From a virus: a stretch of DNA of 37,725 nt. The stretch lies in the IMG/VR virus record IMGVR_UViG_3300010354_000230, positions 1-37,725 of that record; one strand, given 5' to 3'. The translations under genes and the position numbers were made by a program. The notes beneath the pieces are model-generated. The model was given only the letters and a program-made list of their open reading frames with translations, searched no databases and was not told the origin of the DNA. Shown in pieces: positions 1-12,491 of this stretch (position 1 is the stretch's first letter; each line of letters opens with the position of its first letter).

Positions 1-1044
1 CATAATCTTAAATAGGTCCTGCATTGTTTGATTGTTCTTAAGAGTAGTTTGAGTAACTTGACTTGGTATTAGATCAATGTTTAATTTGAATTCATCGCCT
101 TTAGCAAAGTCAGCTTTTTCAATGCCTAAATCGTTAAGGCCTTTTCCTCTTCTTACAATATAGTCATTAAATATTGATGAAACTAATTCAAGATATCTTT
201 CATCGGGCGATGTACTTAGTAATTCATTACCTCTTAGTCCCCGCTCTTCTATAAATGCAAGTATATCAAGTAAAAGAATTTCATTAATATCAGCAGGTAT
301 CTTTTTATGGTCAATCGGCTCTCTATAGCTTAATAGATTTATTGTATAAGGATCAATAAGCTTAGCAGATATTGATTGTGAACCTCCTGGTTTATAAAAC
401 TTAAAAACAATTGATTCGATTGGTTTACTTAGGTCATCCTGTAAAATTGTTGAGGTTAACTTTGGATTAAGAACCGTTATAAGATACTCTGCAAATGAAG
501 ATGTTTTGAAAATTTCCAGTTGGTCTTCAATTGGGGTTGAAATAAACTTTTTAATTTTTTCTTTTTGATTATCCGTCAAATAACCCTTAAATATTGGCAA
601 CAGCGGAGTAACACCTAATGCATTTGCCCAGTCTTCAATAACTCTAGGATCTTCGATTATCTTAGTAATCTTACCATTTGAATTCTTTACTTGGATATGA
701 GTCAATACCAAGTTATTCTTAGGTAATTTATCATACTTAATTACACCAGGTTCATTATGTACAAAATACTGAAAACAAAATCTCCAGGTATTAGGAATAG
801 AATCAAAAAAAGAAGATGTAGAATCTTTAATGTAGGTAATTGGCTTTTCATAATATACCATTAAAGTTCTATCAATTAAATTAATTGGCTTATCATTTGA
901 TTTAAAGAATTTTAAAGACTGTCCAGATTTTTCAAATGAAAATGCAGAACCGGATAACTTTTCAGTTACCACCAAATAGTCCTTAAATAGGTCATTGACA
1001 AAATCTTGGCCTAATTCTTTATAAATCTTAGCTAATTCTTTCAT
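1..1044 (-). CDS. Nucleotidyltransferase (RNA/DNA ligase-like) fold protein, 3' end cut off by window
   Basis: The reading frame is open from an ATG at 1044 to the left edge, giving 348 codons with the C-terminus missing. Residues 26-33 read VTEKLSGS, in the position and context of ligase motif I (KxDG), but with Ser where Asp is expected. Around residues 80-105 the RFCFQYF segment followed by IKYDKLPKNNLVLTHI resembles the motif III region of phage ligase-like proteins. Later PIESIVFKFYK resembles motif IV/V (EGIVF...K). I infer a divergent member of the covalent nucleotidyltransferase superfamily; the family link comes from motif order, not from a search. The gene follows the 1199-2470 gene after a terminator and has its own promoter-like element at 1067-1077. 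It could be a real enzyme with an altered motif I, or a non-catalytic binding protein. Codon use looks like that of its neighbours. Confidence 0.7.
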   Translation of the reverse strand, partial: MKELAKIYKELGQDFVNDLFKDYLVVTEKLSGSAFSFEKSGQSLKFFKSNDKPINLIDRTLMVYYEKPITYIKDSTSSFFDSIPNTWRFCFQYFVHNEPGVIKYDKLPKNNLVLTHIQVKNSNGKITKIIEDPRVIEDWANALGVTPLLPIFKGYLTDNQKEKIKKFISTPIEDQLEIFKTSSFAEYLITVLNPKLTSTILQDDLSKPIESIVFKFYKPGGSQSISAKLIDPYTINLLSYREPIDHKKIPADINEILLLDILAFIEERGLRGNELLSTSPDERYLELVSSIFNDYIVRRGKGLNDLGIEKADFAKGDEFKLNIDLIPSQVTQTTLKNNQTMQDLFKIM

Positions 1045-1198: not shown

Positions 1199-2470
1199 CT
1201 ATCTACCGTATTTAATTATACCGAGTAATTGATTGAGTGCAGCAAAGGTTCCGGTTAGTTTATAAAGTTTGCCATTGTATCTAAATACAATGCCTTCGGT
1301 AGGATAGATTGAATTTATTCCGCCAATTCTATCAAGTCTGGCCAATTCATCTTCAACCTTTTTAACCTGATCAGCTCCACCGGTTTTTCTAATTTTATCT
1401 GCCTCAGCTTGTAGATATGCCCGAAGTCTTTCGGTTTCTCCGGTTGGATCGGCTGCAAGAAAGTTACTTGCATTCTTAAGAATGACAGATCCTAATTCCA
1501 AAAACAGATCTTCAAAAGGCCTGATGTTTTCTTTATACTTTTTCTTAACATCCTCCTTATCAAATTTCTTAATCTTTGCAGATTCTTCTGGTGTTAATAC
1601 TTTATCTAACGATCTCATATTTAAAGTATTCTTATCATCATAGGCCCATCTTCTTAAAAGACCTTCTTTTACATCTTGTGGAGCAGAAGAAAATTCTTTA
1701 TCAATCAATTCTCTCCACCACATTTCATGATATCTTGATACTTCATCACCATCATTAAGATTATACCTTTTTTGTAATTCAATTACCTTATTAATGAACT
1801 TTTGTTTATTTTCACTGAAGTCCATGTCCTGTTGTAATTGTATAATTCTAGGTGGTATAATCTTAAAAGTTTTTCCTAAATCAGCTTGGACTTTGGATAA
1901 GATAGCAGGTATCTCCTTTGCAGGTCTAGCCTCAGTACCAACAACATTGCCGTTACCGTCAGTTTTAGTTATATTATGAAACTGAATAACATCAGTATCA
2001 TAATTGATAACATTAGGATTCTTAGAATAGATAAGTTCCATGTTCATGAAATTCTTACCGTTTGCAAAGGTTTCATCCTGAACTTTTTGTGGTAATCTAA
2101 TTAAAAGATCAGCAAGATCTTGCGCAGCAAATTGGAATGTATCTCGTACCGATGCACTTGGATGATCTGCAAACTTTTGCTTAAAATCAGAAAGAGACAT
2201 TGGATTAATACTCTCCCCTTTATTTCTTGCAAATTTTACTTCTCCATCTTGAATAGTAGCCCATACATTTTGGCCATCAGTTTTTTCGGTAGGATCTTCT
2301 TCAAAGTTTAATTCACCACGAAGCCCAGCATCAATGATACTTTTAAAGTCTCCAAAAGTTAAACCCTTATCATCAAACGGATGATTCATGTGGCCAGCAG
2401 CGCCACCTTCTAAAAGTAATGGCTGGCTTTTATCGGCCAGCCATTGTTCAAAAAGCTTAATATATTTCAT
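1199..2470 (-). CDS. Ligase-like nucleotidyltransferase with capsid-targeting leader
   Basis: 423 aa. Seen: motif I KTDG at 63-66 (Lys63 would be the nucleotide-accepting residue), an ARNKG segment at 81-85 matching the usual RxxxG motif, a NMELIY motif III-like strand at 143-148, and EGIVF at 392-396 followed by Lys401/Lys404 for motifs IV and V. This motif order is that of the covalent nucleotidyltransferases (DNA and RNA ligases, capping enzymes); similar proteins with GHMxHPF before the KxDG region occur in T4-like phages. The first 21 residues (MKYIKLFEQW...LLLE) look like a T4 capsid-targeting leader ending at a perfect prohead-protease site LLE/G, so the mature enzyme would begin at Gly22. 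I infer packaging in the head. The substrate (nick, RNA end or protein) cannot be told. A terminator follows the gene. Confidence 0.8.
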   Translation of the reverse strand: MKYIKLFEQWLADKSQPLLLEGGAAGHMNHPFDDKGLTFGDFKSIIDAGLRGELNFEEDPTEKTDGQNVWATIQDGEVKFARNKGESINPMSLSDFKQKFADHPSASVRDTFQFAAQDLADLLIRLPQKVQDETFANGKNFMNMELIYSKNPNVINYDTDVIQFHNITKTDGNGNVVGTEARPAKEIPAILSKVQADLGKTFKIIPPRIIQLQQDMDFSENKQKFINKVIELQKRYNLNDGDEVSRYHEMWWRELIDKEFSSAPQDVKEGLLRRWAYDDKNTLNMRSLDKVLTPEESAKIKKFDKEDVKKKYKENIRPFEDLFLELGSVILKNASNFLAADPTGETERLRAYLQAEADKIRKTGGADQVKKVEDELARLDRIGGINSIYPTEGIVFRYNGKLYKLTGTFAALNQLLGIIKYGR

Positions 2471-2479
2471 GTATTAAAA

Positions 2480-3835
2480 TTACTTTCCCATTGAGGATTG
2501 TAAAGCCCCAACCATTGCACCATAGTCACCTTTGTACTTAGACTTAAGGCCATCGATAACTTCCTTAGCTTTTGCTTCATCAAATTTATCGCCATGTGCA
2601 GATTTCAAAATTTCAGTTGCGTATTCTTCAAAATCAGAATCAGACTTAATTTCTTTTTCTGAAATCTTACCTTCTTTTACAACAACAGTACCTTGTGTGG
2701 CTGCTTCATCTTTTGCAGTTTTAGGTTCTTCAGTAATTTTTTGATCTTTAGTTACTAATTCTTCGCCTTCTTCTTCCTTCTTTTCAGTAGGTTCTCCAGT
2801 CTTTACTAATTCTGCAGCAATTCCTGCGGCAGTTTTAGAACCATCTCCTTTTACAACTGGTATTTCAATTCCATTTTGATCTTCTTCATTTAAGTATGAC
2901 TCAGAAACAAACTGTGAGAATGATCTTATTGAAGATACAGAACGAGAAACCGTTTCCTCAACTTCTTCTGTTTCTTCAGTCTCATCGGTTTCAATAGAAT
3001 CAGCTACAGGAACCGCTTCATCGTCATCTTCAGCATCATCTTGATAAGTAACCTTTTTGTTAATGTTAATATCCTCTTCTTTAATAAAATCTTCAAAGGT
3101 CATTATTCTACGTTTAGCAACCGGATCAGTTCCTGATTTTTCATCATCGCCTTCAGCAGGTACCTCTGCGGTAATTTCCTGATCTTTAGTTACTAATTTT
3201 TCGCCATCCTTTTCGCTATCTTCTTTAGGTTCACCTAATTTAACAGTCTTATCTTCAATTTCTTCGGCGGCGTCTTCTTCAACTTCAGCACCAACCAGAT
3301 TACCACTTGTATCAAATTTAAGTTCTAAACCATTACTTAGGTATACTTCAAAACCTTCTTCATCGCTTTCAGCCTTAGTTACCTTTGCATCAGTATATTT
3401 TGAAGCAACATAATCAAGAATCCCTTTAGGTAATGTATTAGGATCTACATAATCCTCATCTTTATCTTCGGCACCGGTTTCAGGAGCAGGAGCAGCAATT
3501 TCTTCGTCACCTTCAGCAACCTCACCAGTTGCACCAACTTCTTTGTCTTCTTCTTTTTCCCCTTCTTTATCTTCTAAAGATTTAGGTTCGCCCATATCTT
3601 TAATTTCATCCTCGATATCTTCAGCATCATCTTCACTGATATCATTCTTTGGATTGAATTCTTTTAATAAGGCCTCTAATTTTGAAAGAAGAGATTTTTC
3701 CTTTTTGATTTCGTCAATGTTATTATAGCCTAGCTTTTGAACTAATTCCGCTAAAGCTTCTTGGCTAAGATTTGCTGATTCAAGGATAGAAAGACTACCA
3801 TTAGAAGCAGCTGAAAACTTTTTAATAGGCTTCAT
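2480..3835 (-). CDS. Acidic head-core-like protein with three capsid-targeting-like motifs
   Basis: 451 aa, extremely rich in Glu and Asp, mostly low complexity. The N-terminus MKPIKKF...SILE/S matches a leader plus T4 prohead-protease site (I17-L18-E19 before S20). Two similar short motifs recur inside: MTFEDFIKEED at 245-255 and RSFSQFVSE at 304-312. A unit of about 26 residues is repeated: GEPK...GEKLVTKDQEIT at 201-222 and GEPT...GEELVTKDQKIT at 347-368, with a weaker copy near 82-97. Residues about 396-451 look like a compact helical domain. In T4 the acidic scaffold protein gp22 and other core proteins are built and cleaved in this way, so a prohead core or internal head protein is a reasonable inference. 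It is not a clear gp22 homologue. A promoter-like element lies 25 nt upstream. The next gene, ten bases on, has the same kind of leader. Confidence 0.75.
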   Translation of the reverse strand: MKPIKKFSAASNGSLSILESANLSQEALAELVQKLGYNNIDEIKKEKSLLSKLEALLKEFNPKNDISEDDAEDIEDEIKDMGEPKSLEDKEGEKEEDKEVGATGEVAEGDEEIAAPAPETGAEDKDEDYVDPNTLPKGILDYVASKYTDAKVTKAESDEEGFEVYLSNGLELKFDTSGNLVGAEVEEDAAEEIEDKTVKLGEPKEDSEKDGEKLVTKDQEITAEVPAEGDDEKSGTDPVAKRRIMTFEDFIKEEDININKKVTYQDDAEDDDEAVPVADSIETDETEETEEVEETVSRSVSSIRSFSQFVSESYLNEEDQNGIEIPVVKGDGSKTAAGIAAELVKTGEPTEKKEEEGEELVTKDQKITEEPKTAKDEAATQGTVVVKEGKISEKEIKSDSDFEEYATEILKSAHGDKFDEAKAKEVIDGLKSKYKGDYGAMVGALQSSMGK

Positions 3836-5399: not shown

Positions 5400-5845
5400 T
5401 ATTGTTCATCTTCGAGTCTTATGCGATTACGAATTGCAAATGCAAGATTATCTAATGTCTTAATACATTCATAGTAATAATCTACGTGGGATTGCAGCAT
5501 ATCTATTTGTGTTCTTAATGAACTAAGTTCTGCTTTAATAAATTGATGTTTTTCGCCGCTCGTTAATTTAACATCATAATTTAATGTATATTCTCTGTAC
5601 TGAGATCTATAATATTTTTCCCATGTTGCATTTCTCTTAAATATCATTGTCTTAAAATCAGTAACTTTATCTAACAAGATTTGTCTATATGATAACATGT
5701 TTACTTGACATTCAGCAAGCTCATTCATATTTTTGATCTTAAGAACTAGTTCATTTATTTTATTTTTCCAATCAATCCTGTCACTTGTTAGTCTAGCCTC
5801 AAGTTCCTCGTTAGCCTGTTTTATTTGTGTATCGTCAAATGCCAT
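5399..5845 (-). CDS. uvsY: UvsY-like recombination mediator
   Basis: 148 aa, close to T4 UvsY (137 aa), nearly all helical and highly charged. The second half has the arrangement I associate with UvsY: a Lys/Tyr-rich segment, then SGEKHQFIKAELSSLRTQID (97-116) and a final helix with IRNRIRLEDE. UvsY loads the UvsX recombinase on gp32-coated single-stranded DNA. The assignment rests on this pattern and on position immediately before uvsW and in the same run as gp32- and primase-like genes. The start is preceded by AAGGA with 8-nt spacing, one of the few Shine-Dalgarno-like sites here. The gene overlaps both neighbours by one base (TAATG at both ends). Another helical accessory protein cannot be excluded. 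Confidence 0.7.
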   Translation of the reverse strand: MAFDDTQIKQANEELEARLTSDRIDWKNKINELVLKIKNMNELAECQVNMLSYRQILLDKVTDFKTMIFKRNATWEKYYRSQYREYTLNYDVKLTSGEKHQFIKAELSSLRTQIDMLQSHVDYYYECIKTLDNLAFAIRNRIRLEDEQ

Positions 5846-6066
5846 TAGAATATTCCTTTATCGTTATTAATGCGTTTTGCCATTTTTATTTTAGGCTGAA
5901 ACTTTTTCTTAGGTTGATCTACTTTAATATCTTTTTTATCATGGGATAGTTTACTTTTAGTAAACGAAGTAAATAGCCTGATTCTTTTTTGGCTATCTTC
6001 ATAATCTTCATAAAAGTTTTCTATCTGCTCGTTCACAAACGATTCATATTTTTTTATTTCAATCAT
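5845..6066 (-). CDS. Small basic protein with capsid-targeting-like N-terminus
   Basis: 73 aa. The N-terminus MIEIKKYESFVNEQ resembles the MKxIKxFExF leaders of the other suspected head proteins here, but no [L/I]-x-E-[A/G/S] site follows. From about residue 27 the protein is Lys-rich (FTKSKLSHDKKDIK, then KKKFQPKIKMAKR), which suggests nucleic acid binding. It overlaps the primase stop by four bases (ATGA) and uvsY by one base, so it is translated with replication genes. It may be a small internal head protein or an accessory factor for primase or recombination. I do not recognise the family. Confidence 0.6.
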   Translation of the reverse strand: MIEIKKYESFVNEQIENFYEDYEDSQKRIRLFTSFTKSKLSHDKKDIKVDQPKKKFQPKIKMAKRINNDKGIF

Positions 6067-9238: not shown

Positions 9239-9592
9239 TTAGAGCCTCTTACCTAACACTGCACCTAATGCAGCACCAACTAAACGACTGGTTAATAAAT
9301 CATAAAGAGCACCCTTTTCAATTCCTAATACCTTACAGATGGCTTCACCTATAGATTTTCCTAATGCAAAACCAGTAAGACCTCCAAAAATTGAACCAAG
9401 TAAACCTTCGTTGACCAGTTCTTCAACAACCTCATCAAGATTTTTACCATTATTATGAGCATCTACTATTCTTTGTACTGCTTCATTAACAATAGCATTT
9501 TGTTCTTCGGTTAGTTCTGATTCATTTAAGACCTGTAACAGATCATTGGTGTCAGCTTTTGATTCGTAAATATAGTCTTTAAAAGTTTTCAT
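9239..9592 (-). CDS. Small glycine-zipper protein with T4-type capsid-targeting leader
   Basis: 117 aa. The N-terminus MKTFKDYIYESKAD closely resembles the leader of T4 internal head proteins (MKTYQEFIAEA). A perfect prohead-protease site follows: L22-N23-E24 before S25. After an acidic helical stretch, residues 63-117 are hydrophobic and full of small residues (GLLGSIFGGLTGFALGKSIG, then LVGAALGAVLGKRL) with several GxxxG spacings, as in membrane-inserting glycine zippers. I infer a head-packaged, proteolytically matured protein that could act on the host membrane during DNA entry; the alternative is a hydrophobic core protein. A promoter-like AAATATATAA element is 15 nt upstream. Confidence 0.75.
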   Translation of the reverse strand: MKTFKDYIYESKADTNDLLQVLNESELTEEQNAIVNEAVQRIVDAHNNGKNLDEVVEELVNEGLLGSIFGGLTGFALGKSIGEAICKVLGIEKGALYDLLTSRLVGAALGAVLGKRL

Positions 9593-9617: not shown

Positions 9618-10170
9618 AAGTTAAATCTACCACAAACTCAGTAAAGTTATGGTGGAACACAAGATCAAATGTCTGAAACTCAACTGTATTACTTGAAAAG
9701 TTGAGATCCAGATCGCTAACGCTAATCCATATCATTTGTCTAAGTTTTACTGTAACCAAAACATTTCCTTCTCCGTCTAGCATTTGAATTCCGTTTCCTT
9801 CCGGTACATGCGAATATTTACCACTTAATTTGTAATAATAGTTAAAGGTGTCTAAAGCCATCCAATAATTAATCCATCCGTCAAATGCCTGCATGGTTAC
9901 ACGAAACTCGCTTTCATATAGTTCTTCTACCGGTATGCTTGATCTATAACCTCTGGTATATCCTGGAAAGTTTTGCTGCTCGGTAGGATTATAAGATGGC
10001 CCAGGTAAATTCAATGATTGGACTCCATAGTTCCAATAATCTATAGGTTCCTTAATAAGACCGCCTGGCATACGATTAAAGTATGGTCTATATTTATCCG
10101 CTATTTCAGGCGGAATAAAGTTTCTAGGAAATGAAAACCTAAACTGATTATTTCTTGCACTTAATAACAT
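9616..10170 (-). CDS. Tail-tube-fold protein (gp19/gp54-like), probable
   Basis: 184 aa. The second half shows the strand pattern of contractile-tail tube proteins: EFRVTMQAFDGWINYWMALD (87-106), then IQMLDGEGNVLVTVKLRQMIWISVSDLDLNFSSNTVEFQTFDLVFHHN in two hairpins, with the ISxxDL / FxTFxLxF alternation near the end. Members of this fold include T4 gp19 (tube) and gp48/gp54 (tube start on the baseplate). Which one this is cannot be decided; its place after the baseplate-type genes, with no tail sheath in sight, would suit a tube-initiator role. It is a little longer than gp19 (163 aa), with an extra aromatic- and Pro-rich N-terminal segment of about 70 residues. Confidence 0.55.
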   Translation of the reverse strand: MLLSARNNQFRFSFPRNFIPPEIADKYRPYFNRMPGGLIKEPIDYWNYGVQSLNLPGPSYNPTEQQNFPGYTRGYRSSIPVEELYESEFRVTMQAFDGWINYWMALDTFNYYYKLSGKYSHVPEGNGIQMLDGEGNVLVTVKLRQMIWISVSDLDLNFSSNTVEFQTFDLVFHHNFTEFVVDLT

Positions 10171-10172
10171 AT

Positions 10173-11135
10173 TTATAGAGTATAGTTATTGAATCCGCTT
10201 TCTCCACTGAGATCTGTAAAGCCATTTTCACCACTGAGGAATGATAATTTACCTCTGCCACCACCACCTGAAAATACAGGACCTGCCCCAACAGAATTTA
10301 CACCAGGTATTGTTTGTACTAATTGCTGGGCAGCTTGTTCAAAGAATGCTTGTTTCTGAGAAGCGGTTGCAGCAACTTCAGCCACCTTTTTAGTTGATTC
10401 TAATTGAAGTCTTCTTAGTTTTACCAATTCTTCTTCTTTTTGTGCTGACGTTGCCTCTGCCAATAATTGTGATGCCGTAGTTGATCCTAACTTATCACTT
10501 AATATTTTAACCTCATCGGAAAGATTTTTATTACTTTCTTTTAGAGAATTAATTACGGTAATTTGTTCTCCTATCAATTGATCCTTTGCCCTTATGTCAG
10601 CATTTAAACTATTTACTTGACTCTGTAGAGATGCAATTTCTTTTGCATATTGTACTCTTGCTTCTTCTAATTGATCAGTTAAGCTTTGTTTAGCTGCTTC
10701 GGTAAATGTTAAGAATGATCCTGTATACAAAACAGATTCATCGGACTCTCCATCTGGATCAACCATTTTGGTTGAAATGTAAAAAGTTCTATCACTTAAT
10801 GCAAGTATTCTTTTTGCATCATCACCATCTATTCTAAATAAAACCTGCCCAGCCGCCATGTCTACATTCTCAACATTGGTATAATTAGGTATTCTTATTT
10901 CATCTTTTTCACTAATAAAAACCATGTAAATAGTACCAACATTGCTAAGATCAATTGGTGTGTTAACCCCATCTATTTCATCATAAATAGTAAAAATGAA
11001 ATAGTCATCAAACGGAGATATTCTAATGGTACCTTCACCCTGAGGCATAGGAGATTCGTTTACAGAAAGATTTACAAATCTTTTATAAACTTCAGATTCC
11101 TTTTCAGATAATGCTATGTCAGTTGTAATTGCCAT
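10173..11135 (-). CDS. Virion protein with beta-rich head and long coiled coil
   Basis: 320 aa. Residues about 20-145 are beta-rich and acidic, of the kind found at the N-terminus of phage baseplate and fibre attachment proteins. Residues about 150-215 form a strong coiled coil (TDQLEEARVQYAKEIASL onward), continuing as an Ala/Gln/Glu-rich helix to about 275. A glycine-rich hinge (GGGGRG) then leads to a short repeat, LSGENGF and LSGESGF, at the very C-terminus. The shape suggests a trimeric rod or whisker-type protein. It begins one base after the stop of the preceding structural gene. No specific family recognised. Confidence 0.55.
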   Translation of the reverse strand: MAITTDIALSEKESEVYKRFVNLSVNESPMPQGEGTIRISPFDDYFIFTIYDEIDGVNTPIDLSNVGTIYMVFISEKDEIRIPNYTNVENVDMAAGQVLFRIDGDDAKRILALSDRTFYISTKMVDPDGESDESVLYTGSFLTFTEAAKQSLTDQLEEARVQYAKEIASLQSQVNSLNADIRAKDQLIGEQITVINSLKESNKNLSDEVKILSDKLGSTTASQLLAEATSAQKEEELVKLRRLQLESTKKVAEVAATASQKQAFFEQAAQQLVQTIPGVNSVGAGPVFSGGGGRGKLSFLSGENGFTDLSGESGFNNYTL

Positions 11136-12491
11136 TTATCCTGTAATGTTTTGTATTTTAGCGGGTGATATTGCAGCTTTAATATTTACTCTATCTCTGA
11201 ATGTAGTAACATACTTTGTTTTTACCACCAGCTTTTCTGTTATCTGTTGCGTTGTATCAGCACGATTACCAGAAGAACCTGTTGATACAATGATATTTCT
11301 ACCATCATCCGGCGCAATTTGATTTACCACGGTTGCTACGGTAGGTACCGTTCCTAAATTAATTTTCATTAATCTGCGCCCATACTTTTTTACATCAAAT
11401 GAAGTTAAGCTAGCCTTTTTGATTATCTGACTATTATCAACTCTATTATAAAGTCTTAAGACATAGTTAATCACAAACGATACTGCAATGCCACTGTTAA
11501 GAACGATAGGGCGATATAAAATAGGATCATCAAAATTAGATGTTTGTGTTATTATTTGATTACCTGTTTGTATAAATGTATTTCCTATTTGTTCACTTAG
11601 TGTAATTTCATGAAACACAATATAATTACCTCCGGCGGAATTAAGTTGGGCAATGAGATTAGATAAACTTGAACCGGTTACTAATCCTGTTAATTCAAAA
11701 TAATCACCAACACTTGACTCGGTAACACTTGCATATAGGAAATCATAAATATCACGATTAAGAATTGTATATGCATTGATCTCTTCTACTTGATAAAAAT
11801 TATATGCATTAACAACCTGAGTATTAAGTATACCCAATGCTCTTAGTGTAATAGGCGGGGTAGTAATAAATCCCAGTCCTTCGGTTAGTTTATATCCTAA
11901 TCCGTTTGGATCATTAGAATTAAATGTTTGGGTTAAGTAATAAGTAGAAGGTATTCGCCATTCAATATATGTTGAATATAACTTATCAGCAATTAAAAGA
12001 GGATCAGGATTAAATACCGGTGTATCGGTCTTTAAGAAATTTATTGAAGATAAAACAATGTCATCACCATTTCTCTTTTGTGTGGTAACATCAAATATGA
12101 TACCATCATATCCTTCAAAGGAGAACCCAGCAACAAAGTGTACCCTAACCCTATCATATTCTACATTTAAGTTAGGCGAAAACGTTTGTAATAGCTGAGA
12201 CGTTGGTGTTAATTCAGGATCATAATCATTATAAGGTACTCCTATACTGGTATCAAGATAAACATATTGAGTCTTTTCTTTATTAGTAGGAACAGCGGAA
12301 ATGTCCCTATAGTTTCCCATAGTAGAAGAAACAGAATCAGTATTAAAAAAATAGGAACCATTGGTATATCCGTCTCTCATTATTTCAATAGGATATGTAG
12401 CCGTATTGAATGTAGTAGGATTTGCCTGATCGGTATATACATACTCAATCAGAATGCTTTCGGATATTTGTATAAACTTAGATGATTCCAT
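11136..12491 (-). CDS. Virion structural protein, unassigned
   Basis: 451 aa, rich in Thr, Ser, Asn, Ile and Tyr, with predicted beta strands throughout and no signal peptide or membrane segment. This composition matches the neighbouring large tail proteins. It sits between the membrane/coiled-coil pair and the coiled-coil virion protein, which starts one base after its stop. The start at 12491 follows a GAACAAATG context without a Shine-Dalgarno. No catalytic motif or known domain seen. Confidence 0.5.
   Translation of the reverse strand: MESSKFIQISESILIEYVYTDQANPTTFNTATYPIEIMRDGYTNGSYFFNTDSVSSTMGNYRDISAVPTNKEKTQYVYLDTSIGVPYNDYDPELTPTSQLLQTFSPNLNVEYDRVRVHFVAGFSFEGYDGIIFDVTTQKRNGDDIVLSSINFLKTDTPVFNPDPLLIADKLYSTYIEWRIPSTYYLTQTFNSNDPNGLGYKLTEGLGFITTPPITLRALGILNTQVVNAYNFYQVEEINAYTILNRDIYDFLYASVTESSVGDYFELTGLVTGSSLSNLIAQLNSAGGNYIVFHEITLSEQIGNTFIQTGNQIITQTSNFDDPILYRPIVLNSGIAVSFVINYVLRLYNRVDNSQIIKKASLTSFDVKKYGRRLMKINLGTVPTVATVVNQIAPDDGRNIIVSTGSSGNRADTTQQITEKLVVKTKYVTTFRDRVNIKAAISPAKIQNITG

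What the first reader, a model, noticed from the sequence alone, without database searches (positions are those of the whole stretch)
1199..2470. A ligase-like enzyme that appears to be packaged in the head
The protein has the KTDG, RxxxG, motif III, EGIVF and Lys motif V order of covalent nucleotidyltransferases, and a leader ending at a prohead-protease site. A packaged ligase could seal nicks or ends of incoming DNA, or repair host RNA damage, before any phage gene is expressed.
Basis: partly seen in the sequence, partly recalled or inferred. Interest (0 to 1): 0.7.

Follow-up and report, generated by a model that had tools for sequence, protein, structure and literature searches.

The report
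Ligase-like enzyme with head-packaging leader
A large group of T4-like phages from water makes an RNA-ligase-like enzyme carrying the same kind of removable tag that phage T4 uses to load helper proteins into its head, so it may arrive in the host with the phage DNA and act (perhaps mending broken RNA) before any phage gene is read.

Summary
ORF 1199-2470 (-) encodes a 423-aa protein with intact covalent-nucleotidyltransferase motifs; Lys63, Glu145, Glu392 and Lys404 are invariant in every unique homologue covering them (about 105 of 107). AlphaFold2 plus Foldseek place it among RNA ligases. It is not a clean member of Rnl1, Rnl2 or DNA ligase: a helical block sits between motifs III and IV, motif V is KLTG, and nothing follows it.

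The leader is a T4-type capsid-targeting sequence (F7xxW10L11xD13, then LLLE21|G22), kept in diverse homologues while the linker varies. Similar leaders are enriched in two relatives' genomes (8 vs 0.6 and 5 vs 0.4 expected), and most relatives carry the gp21-type protease. Packaging is well supported but not shown. An experimental parallel: a cyanophage cytidyltransferase related to this enzyme's usual partner domain carries the same leader and was found in S-SM1 virions.

The gene is paired with a second, Rnl2-fold, partly degenerate ligase, usually fused to an NMN-adenylyltransferase-like domain; distant homologues fuse that domain directly to the ligase. Relatives also carry a separate DNA ligase, which favours RNA as substrate, but this is unproven. 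New variant of a known kind.

The parts
1199..2470 (-). LigA: 423-aa divergent RNA-ligase-like covalent nucleotidyltransferase precursor
2408..2470 (-). Predicted removable leader, residues 1-21 (MKYIKLFEQWLADKSQPLLLE)
   Evidence: T4-CTS-like pattern; cut site [L/I]xE|G; low confidence (pLDDT about 60 or below) in the model; leader kept in diverse homologues with a linker of variable length
2432..2452 (-). Capsid-targeting core F7-E-Q-W10-L11-A-D13
   Evidence: matches T4 IPIII Y4..F7 I8.E10; determinants from PMC9026906; enrichment
2407..2408 (-). Predicted prohead-protease cut between E21 and G22
   Evidence: E21 103 of 105 homologues, G22/G23 105 of 105; distant homologue L170 starts Met-Gly-Gly exactly here
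2273..2284 (-). Motif I, K63-T-D-G66 (predicted nucleotidyl lysine)
   Evidence: invariant; aligns with Rnl1 K99
2216..2227 (-). Motif Ia, R82-N-K-G85
2027..2044 (-). Motif III, N143-M-E145-L-I-Y148
   Evidence: aligns with Rnl1 E159
1328..1819 (-). All-helical insertion (residues 218-381) between motifs IIIa and IV
   Evidence: AF2 model
1283..1297 (-). Motif IV, E392-G-I-V-F396
1250..1261 (-). Motif V, K404-L-T-G407
1..1044 (-). NTase-B: downstream partner gene, cut off by the window edge (348 aa visible); Rnl2-fold, with a degenerate active site in the family
   Evidence: LigA-to-B adjacency 157 of 165
949..963 (-). NTase-B motif I, E28-K-L-S-G32
2480..3835 (-). Acidic 451-aa protein just upstream of LigA, with CTS-like sites FEDFIKE, FSQFVSE and FEEYATE; possible head-core or cargo protein (inference)
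5845..6066 (-). 73-aa ORF with CTS-like leader MIEIKKYESFVNE (possible further cargo)
9239..9592 (-). 117-aa glycine-zipper-like protein with CTS-like leader MKTFKDYIYE (possible further cargo)

Best explanation
LigA is a head-packaged, divergent RNA-ligase-type nucleotidyltransferase. It is made as a precursor whose 21-residue leader binds the prohead core through F7/W10, as T4's internal-protein leaders do. The gp21-type protease then cuts after LLLE21, leaving a mature enzyme starting GGAAGHM inside the head, which is ejected with the DNA. In the cell, Lys63 takes AMP from a nucleotide cofactor and passes it to a 5'-phosphate end, which is then sealed. The likeliest target is RNA damaged by host defence nucleases, repaired before or while phage genes are first expressed, with the neighbouring Rnl2-fold protein (and, in most relatives, its NMN-adenylyltransferase domain) as partner. 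Shown by computation: motifs, fold, leader pattern, gene pairing. Inferred: packaging, cleavage, catalysis, RNA as substrate, defence role.
For: Catalytic residues invariant in every unique homologue covering them. AF2 pLDDT 88.9; the top PDB fold matches are RNA ligases or their close kin: T4 Rnl1 2c5u prob 0.91, archaeal/bacterial Rnl3-type enzymes, fungal tRNA ligase, Rnl2; named viral matches are mostly RNA ligases. Profile match to the Rnl1 family E 4e-4 with K63/K99 and E145/E159 aligned. Leader matches T4 IPII/IPIII MKTYQEFIAE|A and, as a two-part leader, IPI MKTFKEF...ITE|A; targeting and processing determinants from PMC9026906. Such leaders are enriched in relatives; gp21-type protease in 7 of 10 and Gp23 in 6 of 10 long relatives. 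The cyanophage cytidyltransferase T4-GC190 starts MKKFSAFLNE|A and was found in S-SM1 virions (PMC3037559); it matches the partner domain's profile. Separate DNA ligase in 8 of 10 relatives. One distant relative fuses LigA with a CCA-adding-type domain.
Against: No virion proteomics and no biochemistry. The Foldseek PDB E-values stay above 1e-3 with low global TM, because of the helical insertion. No Pfam hit for the protein itself. A kinase/phosphatase that would make Rnl1-type ends was rare in relatives (2 of 10 by AAA_33). The window's nearest relatives lack the NMNAT domain in the partner. The EGG part of the cut site is also a conserved core motif, so its conservation alone does not prove cleavage.
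Confidence: 0.58

Rival explanations
1. Packaged DNA-end or nick ligase: it travels with the genome and seals nicks, gaps or ends of the incoming phage DNA (or joins termini) before replication.
For: Packaging with the DNA would place it there; the core is shared with DNA ligases (weaker hits); neighbouring window genes are recombination and repair genes (uvsW, uvsY).
Against: Eight of ten long relatives encode a canonical ATP-dependent DNA ligase elsewhere. No domain follows motif V, so no OB-fold with motif VI. The nearest folds and profiles are RNA ligases.
Confidence: 0.17
2. NAD-linked enzyme: ligase-like and NMN-adenylyltransferase-like domains work as a cycle, for example an NAD+-using nucleotidyltransferase whose NMN product is turned back to NAD+, or an enzyme that modifies RNA or protein ends with NAD-derived groups.
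For: The NMNAT-like domain goes with LigA in most of the family: fused to it (L001, L003, L165-L168) or to the next gene. Unusual invariant H30 and near-invariant H27 next to the core.
Against: No match to NAD+-ligase families. NadV is present in only 2 of 10 relatives. The window's own clade has lost the NMNAT domain from the partner.
Confidence: 0.15
3. Not delivered as an enzyme: the leader only targets it to the assembling particle, where it helps assembly, as Rnl1 of T4 is also annotated as a tail-fibre attachment catalyst; or it is not in the virion at all and the leader is a common N-terminal feature of this phage group.
For: T4 RnlA is annotated with both roles. The EGG of the putative cut site is also kept in the L001 fusion, where it is not N-terminal.
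Against: The leader keeps exactly the T4 CTS determinants while the linker varies in length and sequence; active-site residues are invariant; the leader is disordered in the model.
Confidence: 0.1

Closest known systems
T4 RNA ligase 1 (Rnl1/RnlA, gp63; PF09511) and related RNA ligases
   Same: Nucleotidyltransferase core with motifs I, Ia, III, IV, V; top fold match; E 4e-4 profile match over motifs I-III.
   Different: No Pfam match; about 165-aa helical insertion between IIIa and IV; motif V KLTG instead of KxK; no C-terminal domain; capsid-targeting leader.
T4 RNA ligase 2 (Rnl2/RnlB; PF09414)
   Same: The downstream partner NTase-B has this fold (2hvr E 9e-6); three LigA homologues show weak PF09414 matches. 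T4 rnlB also lies a few genes from uvsW, next to head genes.
   Different: NTase-B has lost or varied several catalytic positions; LigA itself is closer to Rnl1-type folds.
T4 internal head proteins IPI, IPII, IPIII and Alt
   Same: Removable targeting propeptides and an [L/I]xE cut site; the IPs have the aromatic residues at the targeting positions (PMC9026906).
   Different: None of these is a ligase: IPI inhibits a restriction nuclease and Alt is an ADP-ribosyltransferase (PMC9026906).
Cyanophage cytidyltransferase T4-GC190 with neighbour DUF6267 (PF19782)
   Same: CTS leader MKKFSAFLNE|A and NMNAT-like domain in a virion-detected protein; the adjacent DUF6267 protein shows the same motif order as LigA (HxEHPED, KxDG, D/E, NxxxY, H, EGxV, KLxxxxFxxxN).
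   Different: Profile comparison of LigA with DUF6267 is not significant (E 0.02-0.43); the two cyanophage DUF6267 proteins of S-SM1 and syn9 lack the leader.
Polyvalent proteins and other packaged phage effectors (PMC5512222, PMC9503650)
   Same: Multi-domain enzymes thought to be injected with phage DNA; the fused relatives (L003, L168) combine ParB-like, CCA-adding, NMNAT-like and ligase-like domains.
   Different: In the passages of those papers found by term search, no RNA ligase is described among the injected domains.

Membership tests
Covalent nucleotidyltransferase (ligase) superfamily | Motifs I, Ia, III, IV, V in order with the nucleotidyl lysine | tested here: met
   invariant in all homologues covering the sites
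Covalent nucleotidyltransferase (ligase) superfamily | Nucleotidyltransferase fold | tested here: met
   AF2 pLDDT 88.9; top Foldseek hits are ligases in PDB and, beyond its own family, BFVD
Covalent nucleotidyltransferase (ligase) superfamily | Lysine-dependent nucleotidyl transfer | not testable with these tools
   needs biochemistry
Rnl1 family (PF09511) | Match to the family profile | tested here: inconclusive
   no Pfam hit; hhalign to an eight-member Rnl1 alignment E 4e-4, motifs I-III only
Rnl1 family (PF09511) | Motif V KxK and a C-terminal domain after it | tested here: not met
   K404-L-T-G; the protein ends 19 residues after K404; Rnl1 keeps K240 and K242
ATP-dependent DNA ligase (PF01068) | Family profile; OB domain with motif VI | tested here: not met
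   a separate PF01068 gene in 8 of 10 relatives
DUF6267 (PF19782) | Match to the Pfam profile | tested here: not met
   no Pfam hit for P0001
DUF6267 (PF19782) | Shared order of invariant motifs | tested here: inconclusive
   motifs correspond by eye, hhalign not significant
T4-type CTS cargo (internal head protein) | Aromatic-xx-aromatic-aliphatic-x-acid leader near the N-terminus | tested here: met
T4-type CTS cargo (internal head protein) | [L/I]xE cleavage site after the leader | tested here: met
   LLLE|G here; LxxE|GG in homologues
T4-type CTS cargo (internal head protein) | gp21-type protease and Gp23 capsid in the phage | tested here: met
   in relatives: 7 of 10 and 6 of 10 long contigs; not inside this window
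T4-type CTS cargo (internal head protein) | Presence in the virion | not testable with these tools
   only cyanophage relatives of the partner domain are known from virions (PMC3037559, PMC10665884)
Polyvalent injected protein | Several enzymatic domains in one polypeptide encoded near virion genes | tested here: inconclusive
   true of distant homologues (L001, L003, L165-L168), not of the single-domain window protein

The most novel reading that the evidence does not exclude
A whole branch of aquatic T4-like phages preloads its heads with an RNA-repair and NAD module (an active divergent ligase, a degenerate Rnl2-fold partner and an NMN-adenylyltransferase, sometimes with a CCA-adding enzyme, made as CTS-tagged proteins or protease-cut polyproteins) that counters host RNA cleavage or NAD loss at the moment of DNA entry; Pfam DUF6267 of cyanophages would be the same enzyme.
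Probability: 0.25. Interest if true: 0.85.

Novelty: new variant of a known kind. Interest (0 to 1): 0.62.

Why it matters
Packaged phage enzymes act before any phage gene is expressed, so they can shape the first minutes of infection. ADP-ribosyltransferases and a restriction inhibitor are known cargo; an RNA ligase is not described as cargo in the papers read here. If true, RNA repair can be delivered ready-made; a large unannotated family (several hundred IMG/VR loci), and possibly DUF6267, would gain a function; and a simple leader rule could find other head cargo in T4-like phages. It also offers a lead on why T4 keeps Rnl2 among its head genes.

Tried and rejected
Pfam, PHROGs and PDB sequence searches of the protein alone gave nothing usable; an HMM of 31 homologues against PDB sequences gave only chance hits. 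Single-sequence hhalign to T4 Rnl1 and gp30 was not significant, though the Rnl1 alignment placed the motifs correctly; hhalign LigA against NTase-B found no homology. A profile link to DUF6267 failed significance although motif order matches. The idea that the NMNAT domain always needs NadV was not supported (2 of 10). A canonical Pnkp-Rnl1 pair was not general. The idea that the variable C-terminal parts of NTase-B are PD-(D/E)xK nucleases was considered from the sequence but Foldseek gave no support. Earlier leader patterns were replaced by the one; because that pattern was drawn from the data, its P values are descriptive. Literature searches for a virion-packaged RNA ligase found none; DUF6267 appears in no held paper. 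Supplementary tables were not readable here, so whether T4-GC71 (DUF6267) itself was in S-SM1 virions is unknown.

Full report
What is there. The ORF at 1199-2470 (-) encodes 423 aa. It lies in a T4-like phage contig next to uvsW-, uvsY- and GroES-like genes and a tail/baseplate cluster. By itself it matches no Pfam family, has no significant PHROG match and no related solved sequence. It belongs to a large family: IMG/VR gave 570 and at least 586 relatives in two overlapping scans, annotated phages three distant ones, and bacterial and archaeal genome contigs six (probably mostly phage contigs binned with cells).

Catalytic core. In 107 unique homologues, every row with a residue at the position keeps K63, D65, G66, E392, G393, V395, F396 and K404 (106 rows) and R82 and E145 (105 rows). 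The AF2 model is confident (pLDDT 88.9, pTM 0.85). Its best PDB matches are T4 Rnl1, archaeal and bacterial RNA-ligase-type enzymes, fungal tRNA ligase and Rnl2, with DNA ligases lower. E-values stay above 1e-3, plausibly because an all-helical block (residues 218-381) sits between motifs IIIa and IV and the chain ends just after motif V. Against viral models the first hits are proteins annotated with a cytidyltransferase-like domain (E 2e-38, TM 0.88), that is, fused relatives, and most named hits further down are RNA ligases. A profile of homologues matches an Rnl1 profile at E 4e-4 with K63 on K99 and E145 on E159. So it is a divergent member of the RNA-ligase-type nucleotidyltransferases, not a proper Rnl1, Rnl2 or DNA ligase.

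The leader. T4's IPII and IPIII start MKTYQEFIAE|A and IPI starts MKTFKEFTSTTTPVSTITE|A (cut points by the [L/I]xE rule). In T4, residues 4 and 7 of the IPIII leader direct targeting, residues 8 and 10 direct processing, an Asp at 10 still targets but is not cut, and gp21 cuts after [L/I]xE (PMC9026906). The window leader, MKYIKL-F7-EQ-W10-L11-A-D13-KSQP-LLLE21|GG, has the targeting positions, an Asp at the uncut position, and a later cut site, like the two-part IPI leader. Across homologues the linker changes in sequence and length, but the pattern and LxxE|GG stay (one of 18 leaders listed misses the strict pattern). The first 25 or so residues are the poorly ordered part of the model. The distant homologue L170 begins Met-Gly-Gly at exactly the predicted mature start. 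Genome-wide, the pattern at residues 3-8 occurs in 8 genes against 0.59 expected in G002 and 5 against 0.43 in G004; one of these genes lies directly after the major capsid gene. Seven of ten long relatives carry the gp21-type protease and six the Gp23 capsid.

Independent support for packaging. T4-like cyanophages encode a cytidyltransferase, T4-GC190. In S-SM1 it begins MKKFSAFLNE|AERSF, in syn9 MKKFSAFLSE|A, and a profile of the NMNAT-like domains found next to LigA recognises both (E 3e-9 and 3e-10). That protein was detected in purified S-SM1 virions (PMC3037559), and a cytidylyltransferase was detected in S-CREM2 virions (PMC10665884). Its neighbour in S-SM1 and syn9 is Pfam DUF6267, whose invariant residues follow the same order as LigA's, including KxDG, EGxV and K(L)xxxxFxxxN. 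Profile comparison did not reach significance, so common descent is only suggested. In Methylophilales phage Melnitz-2 the gene before the DUF6267 gene begins MQGFKTFLSE|A, and the DUF6267 protein itself has a looser CTS-like start, MLTLINFSKYITED.

The partner. In 157 of 165 places with room to tell, a second gene, NTase-B, follows LigA; the eight others are distant, mostly fused forms. NTase-B has the Rnl2 fold (2hvr E 9e-6), but its motif III acid, motif IV and motif V vary, while Lys29 is kept in 95 of 99. In most relatives it ends in an NMN-adenylyltransferase-like domain of the NadM type followed by a C-terminal TFxxF tag resembling the leader. In the window's own clade that domain is replaced by other modules. 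The window cuts this gene at residue 348. In distant homologues the NMNAT-like domain is fused directly to LigA, before it (L001, L003, L165, L166, L168) or after it (L167), and in L168 also to a CCA-adding-type domain.

What it does. The best reading is a packaged RNA ligase. Relatives have a separate DNA ligase (8 of 10) and seldom a canonical Rnl1 (1 of 10), so the replication-ligase role is already filled. The link to an NMNAT-like domain leaves an NAD-based reading open. Packaging, cleavage, activity and substrate remain inferences.

Limits. No supplementary tables could be read, and no cellular-protein structure library was on hand. The leader pattern was defined after seeing the family, so its P values are descriptive. 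G002 and G004 are contigs whose completeness is not known.

Noticed in passing
window 1-1044 (-) and L004, L008, L054, L145: The partner gene NTase-B keeps its N-terminal ligase-like domain but swaps C-terminal modules (NMNAT-like; an SSKAG-GGTP type; a SIKKGAGGAS type), with CTS-like sites between modules, as if cargo modules were exchanged.
   Followed up: partly
window 2480-3835 (-): Acidic 451-aa protein before LigA with a PepSY-like domain and three CTS-like sites (FEDFIKE, FSQFVSE, FEEYATE); possibly head core or cargo.
   Followed up: partly
window 9239-9592 (-): Glycine-zipper-like 117-aa protein with leader MKTFKDYIYE|S, close to T4 IPI's MKTFKEF; a possible membrane-active head protein.
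   Followed up: no
window 5845-6066 (-): 73-aa ORF just upstream of the uvsY-like gene with leader MIEIKKYESFVNE.
   Followed up: no
L188:3184-3526: A relative of the window's phage (G004) carries a tmRNA gene with tag DNAELAMAA, followed by tRNA-Ala.
   Followed up: no
L059:5980-7284 and 10077-11354: Two LigA copies near each other in one relative, the second followed by its own NTase-B.
   Followed up: no
L217 and L208 (phage T4, 103-115 kb): T4 rnlB (RNA ligase 2) lies between gene 24 and hoc, a few genes from uvsW, resembling the window's order of ligase-fold genes beside uvsW.
   Followed up: partly
L228:726-3051: In Methylophilales phage Melnitz-2, adjacent genes including a DUF6267 protein have CTS-like starts; an isolate suitable for virion proteomics.
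   Followed up: no
L170:8022-10430: A LigA homologue in a WOR-3 bacterial chromosome MAG starts directly at the predicted mature N-terminus and has a C-terminal GGFKPPHLGH nucleotidyltransferase-like part.
   Followed up: partly
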